Below are positions 2,490 to 20,368 of a stretch of 64,000 nt of DNA, in pieces. Origin of the DNA: Aeropyrum camini SY1 = JCM 12091 (GTDB taxonomy: Archaea > Thermoproteota > Thermoprotei_A > Sulfolobales > Acidilobaceae). Location: positions 1 to 64,000 of the forward strand of contig NC_022521.1 of the NCBI RefSeq assembly GCF_000591035.1. Direction: 5' to 3'. Both the position numbers and the translations under genes were made by a program. The notes beneath the pieces are model-generated. The model searched no databases, was not told where the DNA came from, and was given only the letters and a program-made list of their open reading frames with translations. Positions within the stretch are counted from its first letter, which is position 1; every line of letters starts with the position of its first letter.

Positions 2490-2723
2490 CTACTCTATTT
2501 TCAAAAGCTTAGCCTTATAGCTAGAATTCCCACTGAAAATGCTATTATTTAATATATCTTCAATTTTTGCATTGTTCTCATCATAAACTACGGCTGCGAT
2601 TCCCGTTGGATAGGTGATATCTACTTCTATGACGCCGTCTACCTCTTTGAGAAATCTCTCGATGGTGTACGCACATCCCTCACAGTACATGCCCTCAATT
2701 TTTAGGATAGCGCGTTTCACCAT
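2490..2723 (-). CDS. Heavy-metal-associated (HMA) domain protein
   Basis: A 77-residue single-domain protein beginning MVKRAILKIEG with the metal-binding loop GMYCEGCA (CxxC) near residues 11-18, as in copper chaperones of the CopZ/Atx1 type and mercuric MerP. The open frame runs 27 codons further upstream, but the ATG at 2723 fits the family length and lies about 36-40 bases from a shared AT-rich promoter element. It is divergent from the CcdA-like gene at 2807, suggesting a joint role in handling metal ions or thiols. Base composition is clearly more AT-rich than the surrounding genes. Confidence 0.85.
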   Translation of the reverse strand: MVKRAILKIEGMYCEGCAYTIERFLKEVDGVIEVDITYPTGIAAVVYDENNAKIEDILNNSIFSGNSSYKAKLLKIE

Positions 2724-2757
2724 ATTTAATAACCCATATTTGGTGGGAATGTTCTGT

Positions 2758-2772
2758 CTTAAAAAAATTTTA
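2758..2772. promoter_or_regulatory. Shared AT-rich promoter element of divergent HMA and CcdA-like genes
   Basis: A run of A followed by a run of T forms a TATA-like element usable in both directions. It is about 36 bases from the ATG at 2723 on the minus strand and about 40 bases from the GTG at 2807 on the plus strand, fitting leaderless or nearly leaderless archaeal transcripts. Confidence 0.45.
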
Positions 2773-2806
2773 GTTGCAAACACGTTAATATTATTGGGAA
2801 ACAAAG

Positions 2807-3580
2807 GTGAACGCCAGGCAAGCTATTCTATCGCTGGTTATTATAGTATCAATAACTATCTTTGTAGGTAGAGTCTTCTGGGCCTCATACAGCTCACCAG
2901 CAAGCTTAGCAGAACTCACCGCCTTTACAGCCGTATTCTCTGGGATAGCCGCCTTTTATAACCCATGTGCCTTACCCTTTCTCCCCCTAGTTATTGCTAG
3001 GGCGGCGAGAGAAGACTCCTTAGTGGGGGCATTAAAGGGTCCTATGGGTTTGATATTGTTCAATGCATTGGTTCTCCTTCCAGCACTTGCATTTAGCAGC
3101 GTTCTCCAACAAGTACTTGACCCTTGGTCTTATCCTATGAGGCTCTTCAAAATTTTACTAGGAGTCTTAGTCATGGTTGTAGCAGTTGATTCATTAAGGG
3201 GAAGAATGATCGCATCTAAAATTTCTAGAATCCTTTCAAGGCGAGTGGCTAAAATAAGCGGAGTAAAGCCATCATTATTTGCCTACGGATTCCTTTACAA
3301 TATAGTGGGAGGAGGCTGCGCTATACCAATTATAATAGGGTTACTCGCATCATCACTGCCATTAGGCCCTATAAATACTGCTTTCATAATTACGATTTTC
3401 ACAATCACTATGGCCGTGTTACTAGCAGTCCATGTATTAGTGCCTAACAGAATAACGGTATCCGTGGGCACGAGGTACTGGCCTAAAATCGTAATGGCGA
3501 CATATACACTCCAGGCCCTAGCAGGTCTAGCTATACTCCTTTCGGGAGTTTATCCTGCACTATTCATGACCTTTATCTAA
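2807..3580 (+). CDS. CcdA/DsbD-like membrane thiol-disulfide protein
   Basis: The 257-residue product has about six membrane segments. The family motif FYNPCALPFLP sits at about residues 50-60 and a second Cys in GGGCAIP at about 167-173, giving the Cys pair that DsbD/CcdA proteins use to pass electrons across the membrane. The start is GTG with no strong ribosome site, consistent with a leaderless transcript. It is divergent from an HMA protein 83 bases away, unlike the second ccdA-type gene at 15951 which sits with TlpA and thioredoxin. It may serve metal-linked thiol reduction; the substrate is unknown. AT-rich relative to the rest of the window. Confidence 0.8.
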   Translation: MNARQAILSLVIIVSITIFVGRVFWASYSSPASLAELTAFTAVFSGIAAFYNPCALPFLPLVIARAAREDSLVGALKGPMGLILFNALVLLPALAFSSVLQQVLDPWSYPMRLFKILLGVLVMVVAVDSLRGRMIASKISRILSRRVAKISGVKPSLFAYGFLYNIVGGGCAIPIIIGLLASSLPLGPINTAFIITIFTITMAVLLAVHVLVPNRITVSVGTRYWPKIVMATYTLQALAGLAILLSGVYPALFMTFI

Positions 3581-3936: not shown

Positions 3937-5553
3937 TCAGCTCTTCTCCATCTCAATTTTTATCTTGTGTTTGAAGTTCTCTAGCCTGTCACGAGTCACT
4001 GCGTGTATGTGTAGGGGGTGGGAGGGAGGTAGGTTTAGTTCCTGCACCAGCTTCTCCTCTAACTGCTTAACCTCCTGAGGTGAGAGGGGCTCGGGTGTTG
4101 ATACGACTAAATCGATGTCCCCAGACCTCTCGTACTCCCCCCTCGCTAGGCTACCTGTCACGTAAACCTCTGCATCAGCTATCTCACGTTTGATGACCTC
4201 TGCTGCCCTAGCCACAAGGCTCCTCCACTCACCGATCAGGACCTCCCTGGCCTTTAGAGAGGGGTCTATTATCCGCGGCAGCCTCCTGTCTCTGAGCCCT
4301 CTGTATAGGGCTTCCACAGCCATACTTCCGACCAGGAGAACCGCTAGCACGGCGAGCTCCCTAGAGTTTATTGAGGCCATCTGGTAGACCAGGACGGCGA
4401 GTGCTGTGAGGCTTAGAGTGAAGCCAGCCAGCGTTATCAAGGGGTTTGCGCCCGTCTGCCTGCGAAGCCTGTATGCGGCCAGATTTACCGCTGTAAATAT
4501 GATTAGGAACCCGCCGCTCCCGGCAGTGCTAATCTGCTCCAGGCTCGCATAAAGGGCAAGTATGAGGCTTAGAGCGCCTATGACGAGCAGGCCCTCGTAA
4601 GCCCCCCTCCAGATACGCTTTCCCAAGAGTTGTGGTGCCTCTCCATACTTTGCTATAATGTAGCTGACACGGGCTGAGCCGTACAAGGTTGCGTTTATCG
4701 CACTGCTGGTCGAGGCCAGGGCTGCGGCTACTACGAGGGCGAAGCCTATCTTCCCCAGCACTGGCTCCACTAGCACGGCTAGAGCGTAGTCCCTAGCCTT
4801 TTGAACGGTCTCCGGGCTTAGAGTGCCTGCGGATACAAGAGCTATCAAAACGTAAATGGTGATTACTGTGATGACGCTGGCGTATAGTCCTTTCCTTAGT
4901 GTAGTGGTGTCTCTTACGTCCTTTGCCGTGTTGGCCACCAGCTCGAAGCCTTCATAAGCCAGAAATATTATCATCCCACCCGCTATAACCCTTACGATTG
5001 AGGGCCACTCTCTCGTGTCCAGCCTATTCCAGTCTACAAGCGGGATACTAACTACCGCCACCAGCAGGAGGACTAGGAGTTTGAAGACGACGAGCCCAAG
5101 CTCGACTCTCCCGCTCAATATAGCCCCTAGCATGTTAACAAGTGTGAGCCCAGAGATGACAAGGAGTACCAGGGCTATGTAGGCTCCTCTCTGGCAGCAG
5201 GGAATCATGCTAGCGCCGTAGCTGCCGAAGGCGTGGGCGTATAGAGATATCATGACAATGTAGGATGCAAGTAGCATGAGGTTTAACCCGCCGGTGAAAA
5301 CACTGTCACCATAGGCTCTAACAACAAACTCTATTGTGCCTCCCTCGCTAGGATACCTGGAACTCAGCTTAGCGTACGAGTAAGACGTTATAATAGCTAT
5401 GGAGCCTGCGAATAAGAACGCCAGCGGGGCGGCGGCGCCAGCCAGCTCAAGGCTTAAGCCTAGAGTAGCGAATATGCCACCCCCAATCATACCTCCAACT
5501 CCAATGCTAAACACCTCCCAGAAACCGAGCTTCTCCCCCCCTTTTCCTGCCAA
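3937..5553 (-). CDS. APC-family amino-acid permease fused to a C-terminal nucleotidyltransferase domain
   Basis: The 538-residue product opens with the APC transporter signature (GVGGMIGGGIFATLG, about residues 17-31) and carries about 12 membrane segments to about residue 415, including LAYEGFELVANTAKD typical of APC permeases. After a helical linker, residues about 440-538 form a soluble MNT-type nucleotidyltransferase domain with the motif GSLARGEYERSGDIDLVV at 467-484, which keeps the GS and the two metal-binding Asp (DxD). The frame is continuous through the junction, so the fusion is real in this sequence. The start is TTG with GGTGACC upstream. Transport substrate and target of the transferase are unknown; self-regulation by nucleotidylation is inference only. 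Confidence 0.88.
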   Translation of the reverse strand: MAGKGGEKLGFWEVFSIGVGGMIGGGIFATLGLSLELAGAAAPLAFLFAGSIAIITSYSYAKLSSRYPSEGGTIEFVVRAYGDSVFTGGLNLMLLASYIVMISLYAHAFGSYGASMIPCCQRGAYIALVLLVISGLTLVNMLGAILSGRVELGLVVFKLLVLLLVAVVSIPLVDWNRLDTREWPSIVRVIAGGMIIFLAYEGFELVANTAKDVRDTTTLRKGLYASVITVITIYVLIALVSAGTLSPETVQKARDYALAVLVEPVLGKIGFALVVAAALASTSSAINATLYGSARVSYIIAKYGEAPQLLGKRIWRGAYEGLLVIGALSLILALYASLEQISTAGSGGFLIIFTAVNLAAYRLRRQTGANPLITLAGFTLSLTALAVLVYQMASINSRELAVLAVLLVGSMAVEALYRGLRDRRLPRIIDPSLKAREVLIGEWRSLVARAAEVIKREIADAEVYVTGSLARGEYERSGDIDLVVSTPEPLSPQEVKQLEEKLVQELNLPPSHPLHIHAVTRDRLENFKHKIKIEMEKS

Positions 5554-5714
5554 CCGCTGGTCACCCGTTTCTCGGCGAACCCTTCAAGAGCACAGTTTAT
5601 ACCCCTCTGACTAGAGCCGGGTCATTATACATCGTTGAGGAGAATGTTTATTTTGAGTGTGAGAGGCAATTTGACGCTGGGTCTAGAGGCCAGCGAACCC
5701 TTGCCTTTAGAAAC

Positions 5715-5722: not shown

Positions 5723-5749
5723 GACATTATGTCTTGATAATATATCTTG

Positions 5750-6604
5750 ATGTCAGCCGAGGGGTTTACGAGATTGATCTCCTCTCAGTATGCTGGCAAG
5801 CGTGTGAGACTCTCCAGAATACTTCCAGACGGTAAATCTGTCATCTTCGCCTTCGACCATGGAGTTGAACACGGGCCTGGCGAGATCTCGGAGGGGAGGC
5901 TGGATCCTAGGGTTTTGATTAGAGAGGTTGTCGAAGCGGGTGTCGACGCTATAATGACCACCCCTGGTATAGCCCGTATGACCTGGGATATCTGGGCTAA
6001 CAGAGTTGCAATGATTATTAAGGTGAGCGGGAAGACTAGCCTGAGGCCCGCTGAAGACCAACTCCTCCAGAGCATCATATCGAGCGTGGTTGAGGCCGTC
6101 GCGCTGGGCGGAGACGGGGTTGCGGCGACTGTCTACTGGGGGAGCCAGTATGAGGATAAGATGCTGGAGAGATGGACGCAGATACGCCTGAAAGCAGAAG
6201 AGCTCGGTGTCCCTGCCCTCCAGCTAGCATACCCCAGAGGACCTCACATCAAGAACAGGTACGCAGTCGATATAGTAGCTTATGGAGCCCGGGCGGCAAT
6301 GGAGACCGGAGCCGACCTTATAAAGACCTACTACACCGGCTCGACGGAAACCTTCAGGCAGGTGGTCAAAGCGGCTGGCGGGGTTCCCGTCCTTATGAGC
6401 GGCGGGGCCCGAACAGCTTCTCCCCAGGAATTCCTGCGTAAGGTTCACTCCGTGATGGAGGCTGGGGGTAGTGGGGTAGTTGTTGGGAGGAATGTTTTCC
6501 AGGCTGGTGATATCAGAGGGATGGTTAGGGCAATTAGGGCGGTAGTGCATGAGGGGGCCGATCCTGAGGAAGCAGCGAAGCTTTTAGACGGGAGCGGGGC
6601 TTAG
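5750..6604 (+). CDS. Class I fructose-1,6-bisphosphate aldolase, archaeal DhnA type
   Basis: The 284-residue product matches the DhnA/archaeal class I aldolase family: [12 protein letters not shown] near the N-terminus, the Schiff-base lysine in [11 protein letters not shown] (about residue 187), and the phosphate-binding loops VLMSGGAR and [10 protein letters not shown]. The reaction would be cleavage or formation of fructose 1,6-bisphosphate. A related enzyme of aromatic precursor synthesis (ADH synthase) has the same fold, but the neighbouring phosphofructokinase gene 6 bases downstream supports the glycolytic assignment. The ATG at 5750 is preferred over the TTG just before it; the transcript is probably leaderless. 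Confidence 0.85.
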
Positions 6605-6610
6605 ATAATA

Positions 6611-7543
6611 ATGCCGGAGGACCAGCTGCAGGCCGTCTCCGTAGGCCACGTCCTAGTCGATCTTAGGGTGCAGGTAGACAGGCTCCCAGGCGTGGATGAG
6701 GAGGCGGTGATAAGGGATGAAACGAGGGGTGTGGGGGGTTCTGCGGCTAACGTGGCCGTAGTTTTGAGGAGGCTGGGGATCCAATCAGGCGTCATCGGCA
6801 AGATAGGCCTGGACGACTTCGGGAGGATAGCGGTGGACAATCTTATGAGGGAGGGGGTGGTGATCTCCGGCCTTAGAGTATCTCTCCAAGATAGGACGGG
6901 GTTTTCTATAGTTGTGCGCGATAGGGAAGGGTCGATAACTATCTACAGCTATAAAGGGGCTGCCGAGACCCTCGAGCCGGCGGAGCTTGACGAAAATATA
7001 ATAGGTAAATCTAGGCATGTGCACGTTGCCAGCCTGAGGCCGGACACAACTCTCAGAACACTCGAGATCGCCAAGAAGCACTCCACAACCGTCTCGTGGG
7101 ATCCGGGAAGGGTCCTATCTAGAATGGGGGCCGAGAGGCTCGCCACCATAATATCTAGCGTTGACATAGTCTTTGTTAATAGGGAGGAGGCGAGGAATCT
7201 CACGGGGTCTCACGACTACAGGCAGGCTGCGAGGCAGCTCATAAAACTCGGCCCAAAAATCGTGGTCGTGAAGCTTGGAGCCAGCGGATCATACATCTTG
7301 TCTCAGGATGGCGAGGCGTATATACCAGCGTTAAAGCCCGAGAAGGTGGTGGACACCACAGGGGCTGGCGACTCTTACGCCGCTGGGTTTATAGCAGGCC
7401 TCCTTAGGGGCTACACTATAGAGAAGGCCTCCCTATACGCCACTATCGTAGCTTCGATCAAAGTATCTAGGCTCGGGTCAAACGCTGCGCCCACGCATGA
7501 GGAGGTGGTTGAAAGGGCGAGGGAAATCGGTCTTGAGTTGTAG
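6611..7543 (+). CDS. pfkB: PfkB-family sugar kinase, probable ATP-dependent 6-phosphofructokinase
   Basis: The 310-residue ribokinase-fold protein has the N-terminal GGSAANVAVVLRRLG signature (about 37-51) and the C-terminal DTTGAGDSYAAGF motif (about 249-261), whose Asp is the catalytic base. It follows the aldolase by 6 bases on the same strand, so the two would give consecutive glycolytic steps (fructose 6-phosphate to bisphosphate to triose phosphates). A non-allosteric PfkB-type phosphofructokinase is known from Aeropyrum pernix, and gene order here agrees with that. Family members also phosphorylate nucleosides or other sugars, so the exact substrate rests on context. Confidence 0.85.
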   Translation: MPEDQLQAVSVGHVLVDLRVQVDRLPGVDEEAVIRDETRGVGGSAANVAVVLRRLGIQSGVIGKIGLDDFGRIAVDNLMREGVVISGLRVSLQDRTGFSIVVRDREGSITIYSYKGAAETLEPAELDENIIGKSRHVHVASLRPDTTLRTLEIAKKHSTTVSWDPGRVLSRMGAERLATIISSVDIVFVNREEARNLTGSHDYRQAARQLIKLGPKIVVVKLGASGSYILSQDGEAYIPALKPEKVVDTTGAGDSYAAGFIAGLLRGYTIEKASLYATIVASIKVSRLGSNAAPTHEEVVERAREIGLEL

Positions 7544-17992: not shown

Positions 17993-20368
17993 TCAGAACA
18001 AGTAAGACAAGCCATATATTGCTATTGTCACTATTGCTAAGAAGCCGAAGTATAATGCCATTGTGTCAATGGTTTCTTTAGTATGCCCGGTGAATCCTCG
18101 GATCCAGACTTTCATTAGTAGATAGAAGAGAACCAATACGCCCGCCAGGAGGTGCAGTGAATGTGATAATAGTACGGTGAATGTCGTGGCCACTAGGGGA
18201 TTCTCCAGGCCCTGGCCTAGACGCACTGTGGTTAGCCAGTCAAAGCCTGTTAGGGCAAGGAATCCGAGGGATAGTAGGATTCCAAGGGATAGACCTGCCA
18301 GGCTTAGACTCCTGTCACCAATCTTGGCGGCCCTCGCTGCTATGTATATAAATAGCCAGGACCATATCATTGTCAACACACCAAGTAGCCCTAGATATAT
18401 ATTATGCAGGAAGAGCCCGCCAGGCAGTGAGGGGTTTTCCAGTCTCATCAAAACATATGAGCCTAGGAGCCCTGCAAAGAAGACTGCATCGCCGAACAGG
18501 AAGAAGTACATTCCCAACTTGACTCTGTGGATCTTGGTGAAAGGCCACCTCTCCTTCGTCTCAGGTGGTTCTTCAAATTGGAACCTCTCGCTAAAGTCAT
18601 CCCTAAACCATCCATAGACTGAATATACTGATATTATAGCCCCAGCTATCATAATCGGTAGTGAAAAAGGTACTTGGGCTATCCACATTCCAAGGCCAAG
18701 TAAGAATAGGAAGGGCCCAAAACTTATTAGGAGTGGCCATGGGCTCAAATGGTTGCCATGGTGGCCGTTGCCTGAAGGTATCGCACCGTCTGTAGATACT
18801 ACCATAAGTCTACCGTTCTGGACAACAGGTATGCCATCAAAGTTAAACTCTGATGGCGGCGAGTCTATGAGCCATTCATAGCTCCAAGCTCTCCATGGAT
18901 TCTTCTCGGCGGGCTTCCCGTACTTTGCGGAGTAAATCAGGTTCGCGAACATTATCAAATGACTTAACCCGAATATGAAACCGCCGACAGTTGCAATAAA
19001 ATTCAGTGGTCCCCAATCAGTCCAAGCTGGGTATGTGAAGATACGTCTTGGCATTTCTATTAAGAGGAACATTGGGAAATAGAGAATATTGAACCCAATG
19101 AAAGATACGATGAAATGTATCTTGCCGAGACGCTCGTTATACATTCTTCCCGTCATTTTTGGGAACCAATAGTACAGGCCTCCGAACAAAGCGAATAGCG
19201 CTGCTCCTACCATGACATAGTGGAAGTGAGCGACGATCCAGTATGTTCCTCTGTTTCCTACGTCTAGAAGTGGGTTAGAGTTGAATACGCCGCTGAATCC
19301 TCCAATGATGAATACAGCTATTGAACCCAGAGCGAACAACATTGGAGTTGATAGCTTTATAGCTCCACCTAGTAGTGACAGAATGGCTAAGATCGTTATT
19401 ATTCCGAATGGAACTGATATGAGTTCGGTGTTGAACATGTGCAATTTTAGATACATAAGGTCGATGCCCGTCATGAACATGTGGTGTGCGTAGACGCCAA
19501 AACTCAGAATGGCAGCAGCTATTAGTGCTCCTATTATAACCTTCCTTCCTAATAGAGGTCGTCTACTGAAAACTATTATCATGTCTAGAGCTAGTGCGAG
19601 GCCTGGGAATAGTACTATATAGACTTCCGGATGTCCGAAAAACCAAAACAGGTGGTTCCATAATAGTGAACCCCCCTCTGGCCAGCTAAATATTGCTGCC
19701 TGGAATAGCCTGTCAACTCCTAGAAGAACTAGTGCAGCCTGCAGAGACGGGAAGGCCCATAACATCATTAGCACTGTTAGAAATATGCCCCATGTGAATA
19801 TCGGAAGCCCCATTAACTTGTAATTCTTCGCTCTATTTTGAAATATTGTAACAAGGAAGTTAACAGTCCCTACAGTAACAGATGCCACCATGAAGAGTAG
19901 CCCGAATGCAGTCAGGTTTGCACCATAATTGGGGGTGAATTCGTCCGTGTTTAAGGGGGCATATGCAGTCCACCCGAAGTCCGCGGCTCCTCCTGGCAAG
20001 AAAAGACCAGCAAGCATTAGGAGCCCTCCGAAGAGGAGTAGCCAATAGCTTAGGGCGTTCAGCCTGGGGAAGGCCATGTCTTTTGCTCCCAACTGTATAG
20101 GGACAAAGTAGTTAGCAAACGCAAATCCCAGGGGGCTGATGAACCAGAATACCATAAGGAGGCCATGATTCGTGACAGCTTGATTAAATTTTGCGGCATC
20201 AAGAAAAGTGTTTTCTGGAACACTAAGCTGAATCCTGAAGAGTAGTGCAAGTGTACCAGCCACTATGAAGAAATACAACGATGTAACTAGGTAAAGTATG
20301 CCAACGTCCTTATGGTTAGTTGTGAAGAGCCACCTCTTTATAGAGTATAATCTACCTTCACCACCCAA
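17993..20368 (-). CDS. coxA: Haem-copper oxidase, fused subunits I and III
   Basis: The 791-residue product joins subunit I (residues about 1-500) to subunit III (about 600-791). In subunit I are the low-spin haem His in VTNHGLLMVFW, FGHPEVYIVLFPG with the copper-B His, the proton-channel Glu and the cross-linked Tyr, HHMFMTG with two further copper-B His, and AHFHYVMVG with the haem ligands. The HPEVY word places it among A-type oxidases. Subunit III adds about five helices starting near IHRVKLGMYFFLFGD. It reduces oxygen to water and pumps protons. Start TTG with GAGGTAG upstream; subunit II ends 1 base before. Confidence 0.95.
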   Translation of the reverse strand: MGGEGRLYSIKRWLFTTNHKDVGILYLVTSLYFFIVAGTLALLFRIQLSVPENTFLDAAKFNQAVTNHGLLMVFWFISPLGFAFANYFVPIQLGAKDMAFPRLNALSYWLLLFGGLLMLAGLFLPGGAADFGWTAYAPLNTDEFTPNYGANLTAFGLLFMVASVTVGTVNFLVTIFQNRAKNYKLMGLPIFTWGIFLTVLMMLWAFPSLQAALVLLGVDRLFQAAIFSWPEGGSLLWNHLFWFFGHPEVYIVLFPGLALALDMIIVFSRRPLLGRKVIIGALIAAAILSFGVYAHHMFMTGIDLMYLKLHMFNTELISVPFGIITILAILSLLGGAIKLSTPMLFALGSIAVFIIGGFSGVFNSNPLLDVGNRGTYWIVAHFHYVMVGAALFALFGGLYYWFPKMTGRMYNERLGKIHFIVSFIGFNILYFPMFLLIEMPRRIFTYPAWTDWGPLNFIATVGGFIFGLSHLIMFANLIYSAKYGKPAEKNPWRAWSYEWLIDSPPSEFNFDGIPVVQNGRLMVVSTDGAIPSGNGHHGNHLSPWPLLISFGPFLFLLGLGMWIAQVPFSLPIMIAGAIISVYSVYGWFRDDFSERFQFEEPPETKERWPFTKIHRVKLGMYFFLFGDAVFFAGLLGSYVLMRLENPSLPGGLFLHNIYLGLLGVLTMIWSWLFIYIAARAAKIGDRSLSLAGLSLGILLSLGFLALTGFDWLTTVRLGQGLENPLVATTFTVLLSHSLHLLAGVLVLFYLLMKVWIRGFTGHTKETIDTMALYFGFLAIVTIAIYGLSYLF

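What the first reader, a model, noticed from the sequence alone, without database searches (positions are those of the whole stretch)
3937..5553. Amino-acid permease covalently fused to a nucleotidyltransferase domain
A complete APC transporter runs without interruption into a soluble domain with an intact GSLARGEY...DIDLVV nucleotidyltransferase motif (residues 467-484). The motif is established for MNT/pol-beta-like transferases, including toxin-antitoxin antidotes that modify proteins. The fusion is seen; a role in controlling transport by nucleotidylation of the permease or a partner is inference.
Basis: partly seen in the sequence, partly recalled or inferred. Interest (0 to 1): 0.7.

Follow-up and report, generated by a model that had tools for sequence, protein, structure and literature searches.

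The report
Amino-acid transporter fused to nucleotidyltransferase
A heat-loving archaeon carries an amino-acid transporter with a small enzyme-like domain, of the kind normally used as a toxin's antidote, permanently attached to its inner face, and this fusion has been kept intact across many archaea, which hints at an unstudied way of controlling nutrient uptake by nucleotide chemistry.

Summary
Window 3937-5553 (-) is one 538-aa reading frame: an ApcT-like APC permease (residues 7-424) running into a minimal nucleotidyltransferase (MNT; residues ~430-538) with an exact GSX10DXD motif. It is not an artefact: 67 distinct fused homologues (Thermoproteota, Archaeoglobi, Hydrothermarchaeota, two DPANN-labelled bins) form one clade (100/99 support), so one ancient fusion is the simplest reading. 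G467 and D481 are 67/67, D479 66/67. New here: (i) the domain's nearest free relatives are MNTs of archaeal "Class II" HEPN/MNT modules, each next to a HEPN gene; (ii) the fused protein has lost that partner, and four near-complete genomes with the fusion have no PF05168 or PF01934 HEPN at all; (iii) the third metal-ligand position, Glu/Asp in 26 of 28 free relatives, flips repeatedly between Asp and His in the fused clade (His here), so catalytic competence is plausible but unproven. Best explanation: a captured antitoxin-type adenylyltransferase on the cytoplasmic face regulates its own transporter through Mg-ATP, most likely by adenylylation in cis, possibly by binding alone. No paper in the searched library describes this architecture. 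Transport and enzyme activities are inference.

The parts
3937..5553 (-). fused gene: APC permease + minimal nucleotidyltransferase, 538 aa, TTG start, TGA stop
   Evidence: the ORF listing; Pfam/NCBIfam; 67 distinct fused homologues
4282..5535 (-). ApcT-like APC permease domain, residues 7-424, 12 TM helices
   Evidence: phmmer to MJ0609/ApcT E 7e-60; Foldseek best hit 3gi9 TMt 0.90, 30% identity
5080..5082 (-). Lys158, aligned with ApcT Lys158 (proton-coupling lysine); K in 67/67 fused and at least 95% of standalone relatives
   Evidence: alignment, counts; role of ApcT Lys158 stated in PMC12764776
3940..4266 (-). minimal nucleotidyltransferase (MNT) domain, residues 430-538, predicted cytoplasmic
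   Evidence: PF01909; AF2 pLDDT 89.7; Foldseek hits 1ylq, 1no5, 2rff, MntA 7bxo
4111..4155 (-). GSX10DXD nucleotide/metal-binding motif, residues G467-D481
   Evidence: sequence; G467 67/67, D479 66/67, D481 67/67 in fused homologues
4003..4011 (-). third metal-ligand region, HxH here (H515, H517); column 515 is D 36 / H 30 / R 1 in fused, E 22 / D 4 / Q 1 / H 1 in free MNTs
4264..4290 (-). short linker between TM12 and MNT helix 1, residues 422-430, with near-invariant R423 and D430
   Evidence: AF2 secondary structure
5561..5565 (-). GGTGA, candidate archaeal ribosome-binding site upstream of the TTG start
   Evidence: sequence read; assignment is inference
5747..6604 (+). divergent neighbour: archaeal class I fructose-bisphosphate aldolase; neighbour of the fusion in several Acidilobaceae, either orientation
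   Evidence: NF040816 488 bits; neighbourhood table
6611..7543 (+). PfkB-family sugar kinase, travels with the aldolase
   Evidence: PF00294 E 1e-60

Best explanation
This is an amino-acid transporter of the ApcT group carrying, after TM12 on the cytoplasmic side, a captured MNT domain from an archaeal Class II HEPN/MNT module. The MNT domain binds Mg-ATP through GSX10DXD and regulates the attached transporter, most likely by transferring AMP to a residue on the transporter's own cytoplasmic face (in cis or between neighbouring copies), so that uptake is set by energy or nucleotide state. SHOWN: the fusion, its conservation, the single clade, the kinship to HEPN-linked MNTs, the absence of a HEPN partner, conservation of the nucleotide/metal motif. 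INFERRED: ATP binding, enzyme activity, the cis target and the regulatory output.
For: Architecture and fold. Fused permeases are one clade (100/99 support, 100% of bootstrap trees; SH-aLRT 98 on the larger set) and so are their MNT domains (SH-aLRT 99), so the two domains have stayed together. G467 and D481 67/67 and D479 66/67, although mean column identity of the MNT region is only 40%. MNT dN/dS about 0.01-0.15 in recent pairs with a defined value. The nearest free MNTs are HEPN-linked antitoxin-type proteins. MntA, with the same motif, adenylylates its partner using Mg-ATP, and motif mutants fail (PMC7641770). Permease positions conserved only in the fused clade are enriched at the predicted cytoplasmic face (7 of 14 against 18% background, p 0.007), as expected if the domain docks there. 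The third site is only D or H in 66 of 67, both metal ligands, which argues against simple decay.
Against: The third catalytic carboxylate is His in this protein, and D/H flips at least 8-10 times on the permease trees, so an ordinary pol-beta-type active site is not maintained throughout. No tyrosine or other obvious acceptor is conserved specifically in the fused clade. The cytoplasmic assignment comes from helix counting on a model without coordinates, and the face boundaries were set by hand after the positions were known. No regulation, ATP binding or transport has been measured. One divergent member (L034) has lost the first Asp.
Confidence: 0.42

Rival explanations
1. Nucleotide sensor without transfer: the MNT domain binds Mg-ATP (or another nucleotide) and changes the transporter's conformation allosterically, as cytoplasmic nucleotide-binding domains do in other LeuT-fold transporters (KimA with c-di-AMP). 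No covalent modification occurs.
For: The DxD that binds the nucleotide-side metal is invariant while the third, catalytic-side position flips D/H. No specific acceptor residue seen. KimA with c-di-AMP bound is among the Foldseek hits of the full-length model (8b70). Sulfolobales-type APC permeases carry a different ~350-aa C-terminal extension (L106-L111), so this fold accepts added domains.
Against: The third site is restricted to D or H rather than drifting freely (66/67), suggesting that two-metal chemistry is kept.
Confidence: 0.33
2. The MNT domain modifies a different cytoplasmic protein, for example a HEPN protein or a metabolic enzyme, and the permease serves as membrane anchor or as amino-acid sensor.
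For: MNT relatives modify partner proteins in trans (PMC7641770). LysP shows that an APC permease can double as a sensor for a partner protein (PMC12764776 abstract).
Against: A HEPN partner cannot be obligatory: four genomes at least 95% complete with the fusion (G286, G321, G337, G393) have neither PF05168 nor PF01934 HEPN. Only one fused locus has any HEPN nearby, and that one has its own MNT (L035). No neighbour gene is conserved across lineages.
Confidence: 0.15
3. Structural passenger: the MNT fold helps folding, oligomerisation or membrane stability and has no nucleotide role.
For: Free relatives with about 47-51% identical permease domains exist without it.
Against: Near-absolute conservation of the nucleotide/metal motif in a region that is otherwise only 40% conserved; purifying selection.
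Confidence: 0.08
4. Artefact: frameshift, assembly or annotation error joining two genes.
For: None found.
Against: 67 distinct fused homologues in independent assemblies, including single-contig genomes, with the same junction and fold; syntenic same-genus orthologue.
Confidence: 0.01

Closest known systems
ApcT (MJ0609), Na+-independent APC amino-acid transporter, PDB 3gi9/3gi8/3gia
   Same: Whole permease domain aligned, 30% identity, TMt 0.90; Lys158 at the same position
   Different: ApcT chain is 444 aa and has no MNT domain; substrate of the fused protein is untested
Free APC permeases of the same subfamily in bacteria and archaea (e.g. Mariprofundus, Archaeoglobi, Methanolobus)
   Same: About 47-51% identity over the permease
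   Different: End at about 420-450 aa, no MNT; all on the other side of one well-supported branch
Class II HEPN/MNT modules (PF05168/PF01909) of hyperthermophilic archaea
   Same: Nearest free relatives of the domain, homologous through the N-terminal WxxW helix, GSX10DXD and the HPxExH/HPxDxH strand
   Different: There MNT is a ~115-aa separate protein beside a HEPN gene; third ligand mostly Glu; function untested according to PMC7641770
MntA of the HepT/MntA type VII toxin-antitoxin system (Shewanella, 5yep/7bxo)
   Same: Same fold and GSX10DXD; adenylylates a protein with Mg-ATP
   Different: Separate protein with a HEPN toxin; third ligand Asp71; the fused protein scores 16.7 on the NCBIfam MntA model against a cut-off of 60
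AF0614 (1ylq) and Sulfolobus 2rff standalone archaeal NTases
   Same: Best sequence-profile matches and among the best fold matches in the PDB; AF0614 shares the xExH strand and KYRRL tail
   Different: Not membrane-linked; function unknown
APC transporters with a large C-terminal soluble extension (Sulfolobales type, ~780 aa) and KimA (cytoplasmic domain, c-di-AMP)
   Same: LeuT-fold transporter plus a cytoplasmic domain
   Different: Different C-terminal domain; here it is a nucleotidyltransferase (that the L106-L111 extension is USP-like is from general knowledge, not tested)

Membership tests
APC superfamily, ApcT-like amino-acid transporter | AA_permease_2 profile and LeuT/APC fold with 12 TM | tested here: met
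   PF13520 116 bits vs cut-off 27; Foldseek 3gi9 TMt 0.90
APC superfamily, ApcT-like amino-acid transporter | proton-coupling lysine in TM5 (ApcT Lys158) | tested here: met
   K158 67/67 fused; aligned to ApcT
APC superfamily, ApcT-like amino-acid transporter | amino-acid transport activity | not testable with these tools
   needs proteoliposome or uptake assay
Minimal nucleotidyltransferase (PF01909, pol-beta superfamily) | profile match and fold | tested here: met
   45.1 bits vs cut-off 21; all 44 aligned domains match; Foldseek 1ylq/1no5/MntA
Minimal nucleotidyltransferase (PF01909, pol-beta superfamily) | GSX10DXD | tested here: met
   exact in window; 66-67 of 67 for G and both D
Minimal nucleotidyltransferase (PF01909, pol-beta superfamily) | third catalytic carboxylate on the following beta strand (Asp71 in MntA) | tested here: not met
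   His515 in the window; D 36 / H 30 / R 1 in the clade. This lowers the claim of a conventional active site, not of the fold
Minimal nucleotidyltransferase (PF01909, pol-beta superfamily) | NTP binding and NMP transfer | not testable with these tools
   needs biochemistry
HEPN/MNT (type VII) toxin-antitoxin antitoxin | gene next to a HEPN toxin gene | tested here: not met
   no HEPN in the window locus; 1 of 87 fused locus records has one, with its own MNT; no PF05168/PF01934 in four genomes
HEPN/MNT (type VII) toxin-antitoxin antitoxin | small free-standing protein scoring above the MntA model cut-off | tested here: not met
   fused to permease; NF047752 16.7 vs cut-off 60
HEPN/MNT (type VII) toxin-antitoxin antitoxin | descent of the domain from Class II HEPN-linked MNTs | tested here: inconclusive
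   nearest free relatives are HEPN-linked and fused domains form one group, but the 111-column tree is unrooted and gives no direction

The most novel reading that the evidence does not exclude
A self-adenylylating secondary transporter: an antitoxin-type adenylyltransferase, domesticated after losing its HEPN toxin, covalently modifies its own transporter to switch amino-acid uptake, using an active site in which Asp and His are interchangeable as the third metal ligand.
Probability: 0.28. Interest if true: 0.85.

Novelty: new variant of a known kind. Interest (0 to 1): 0.6.

Why it matters
Both halves are known kinds, but I found no description of them joined in one chain (the library holds open-licence papers only, so this is weak evidence of absence). 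If the MNT domain is active, it would be a transporter controlled by a covalently attached adenylyltransferase and a clear case of a toxin-antitoxin part being domesticated into metabolism. It also makes a question testable: Class II MNTs were described in 2020 as having no biochemical studies (PMC7641770), and here one is tethered to a protein with a measurable activity.

Tried and rejected
Sequencing or assembly artefact: rejected by 67 distinct fused homologues. Loss of the motif in orthologues: rejected. An obligate HEPN partner in trans: rejected for at least four near-complete genomes (PF08780 was not searched). A conserved operon partner across lineages: none found; only local linkage to an FBP aldolase and PfkB kinase in Acidilobaceae, and to MFS-like genes in another Desulfurococcales lineage. 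A fusion-specific acceptor tyrosine: not found. Literature searches for the architecture: nothing relevant.

Full report
WHAT IS THERE. The minus-strand ORF at 3937-5553 is 538 codons from a TTG start to TGA, without interruption. A GGTGA stands 7 bases upstream of the start (sequence printed). Pfam gives AA_permease_2 at residues 9-398 and NTP_transf_2 at 450-536, both well above cut-off. The motif GSLARGEYERSGDID is an exact GSX10DXD. The window is the first 64 kb of a 1,595,994-base single-contig genome; the size fits Aeropyrum camini, and the same-genus genome G113 (1,669,696 bases) fits A. pernix, both from memory only. G113 carries an 83%-identical fused orthologue with the same neighbours.

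NOT AN ARTEFACT. A scan of GTDB genomes, a sample of 398 Thermoproteota genomes and 59 genomes of the class that holds an Archaeoglobales locus gave, after removal of duplicates, 67 distinct fused proteins. They come from Acidilobaceae, Pyrodictiaceae and other Desulfurococcales, Archaeoglobi, Hydrothermarchaeota bins, and two divergent DPANN-labelled bins. The closest non-fused relatives, in many bacterial and archaeal phyla, have permease domains 47-51% identical and stop at about 420-450 residues. On a careful mixture-model tree of 80 permease domains, fused and free proteins are separated by one branch (100/99 support; all 200 bootstrap trees); a larger quick tree agrees. The MNT domains also fall on one side of a branch from 28 free MNTs (SH-aLRT 99, only 111 columns). 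The simplest reading is one fusion, kept ever since. The trees are unrooted, so an older fusion followed by loss cannot be fully excluded.

PERMEASE HALF. ApcT (MJ0609) is the nearest solved structure by sequence (E 7e-60) and by fold (TMt 0.90). Lys158 aligns with ApcT Lys158, implicated in proton translocation (PMC12764776), and is K in 67 of 67 fused proteins. The substrate is unknown.

MNT HALF. AlphaFold2 on 44 aligned domains gives pLDDT 89.7. Foldseek finds AF0614 (1ylq), HI0073, a Sulfolobus NTase and MntA of HEPN/MNT systems. A profile of the domain, run over 60 related genomes, finds free MNT proteins of about 115 residues; the best are homologous along the whole domain, including the N-terminal helix with WxxW. 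Each of the 28 free MNTs used in the tree lies in a locus with a HEPN gene; four of these HEPNs were tested and are PF05168. In the terms of PMC7641770 these are Class II HEPN/MNT modules, whose HEPN lacks the RX4HXY RNase motif and for which no biochemical study was known to the authors. The fused genes have no such partner: of 87 fused locus records (redundant, 1.5-5 kb flanks) one has a HEPN nearby, with its own separate MNT (L035). The window's genome has one clear HEPN, far away and paired with another MNT. Of 23 genomes with the fusion, four at 95-99% completeness have neither PF05168 nor PF01934.

ACTIVE SITE. G467 and D481 are 67/67, D479 66/67, R471 62/67, in a region with only 40% mean column identity. 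dN/dS in recent pairs with a defined value is about 0.01-0.15 (an experimental NG86 routine, undefined for two saturated pairs). In MntA the two Asp of DXD and Asp71 hold two Mg ions (PMC7641770). The column that I match to Asp71 (by position on the next strand; not checked on coordinates) is Glu or Asp in 26 of 28 free MNTs but Asp 36, His 30, Arg 1 in the fused clade, His in this protein. D and H interchange at least 8 to 10 times on the permease trees. Restriction to two metal-binding residues argues against decay; the repeated exchange argues against a conventional fixed active site. H517, two residues on, is 64/67.

POSITION AND POSSIBLE CONTROL. The full-length model (pLDDT 89.9, pTM 0.89) ends TM12 at residue 421 and starts the first MNT helix at 431, so the linker is short. 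By helix counting, the domain is cytoplasmic. Fourteen permease positions are conserved in the fused clade but differ in free relatives; seven (13, 66, 78, 143, 318, 360, 364) lie at the predicted cytoplasmic face against 18% expected (p 0.007). I set the face boundaries by hand after seeing the positions, so this is suggestive only. None of the fourteen is a tyrosine, so a MntA-like acceptor tyrosine specific to the fused clade is not evident.

MECHANISM. Most likely, in my judgement: Mg-ATP is bound by the MNT domain and used to regulate the transporter in cis, by AMP transfer (0.42) or by binding alone (0.33). A separate protein target (0.15) and a purely structural role (0.08) are less likely. 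All of this is inference beyond the conserved motif.

CONTEXT. The gene is divergent from an archaeal class I fructose-bisphosphate aldolase and a PfkB kinase; the same pair neighbours the fusion in several Acidilobaceae in either orientation (L004, L005, L007, L042, L153). No neighbour is shared across lineages.

NOVELTY. Searches of open full texts for this architecture returned nothing relevant, and the two surveys of MNT and HEPN proteins that I searched do not mention permease fusions. I rate it a new variant of a known kind: known transporter family, known domain, new and conserved combination with the toxin partner lost.

Noticed in passing
L143:3546-8300 (G074:C1 ~424.8-429.6 kb): A HEPN-MNT pair that holds one of the closest free relatives of the fused MNT sits beside a long CRISPR-like array (the repeat shows as FNSFFVVS / LSIHSLLF in the reading frames).
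   Followed up: no
L147:3304-6050 (G400:C129): Another close HEPN-MNT pair with a short CRISPR-like repeat array about 1.7 kb away.
   Followed up: no
window 5747-7543 and L004, L005, L007, L042, L153: FBP aldolase plus PfkB kinase stay next to the fused permease in Acidilobaceae in either orientation, which suggests a functional link or chance retention.
   Followed up: partly
L106-L111: Sulfolobales-type APC permeases of about 780 aa carry a different large C-terminal soluble extension (looks USP-like), a parallel case of APC plus cytoplasmic domain.
   Followed up: no
window 17993-20368 (-): 791-aa protein matching cytochrome oxidase subunit I over residues 13-516 with about 270 further residues that look like subunit III: a CoxI-CoxIII fusion.
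   Followed up: partly
L034 and L046: The two fused genes in DPANN-labelled bins (Micrarchaeota, Aenigmatarchaeota) have altered active sites (first Asp to Ser; His517 to Lys), possibly decaying or mis-binned copies.
   Followed up: no
window 2490-2804 (-) and 2807-3580 (+): A small heavy-metal-associated (HMA) protein beside a divergent membrane protein that has no Pfam or NCBIfam match and reads like a cytochrome-biogenesis type protein.
   Followed up: no
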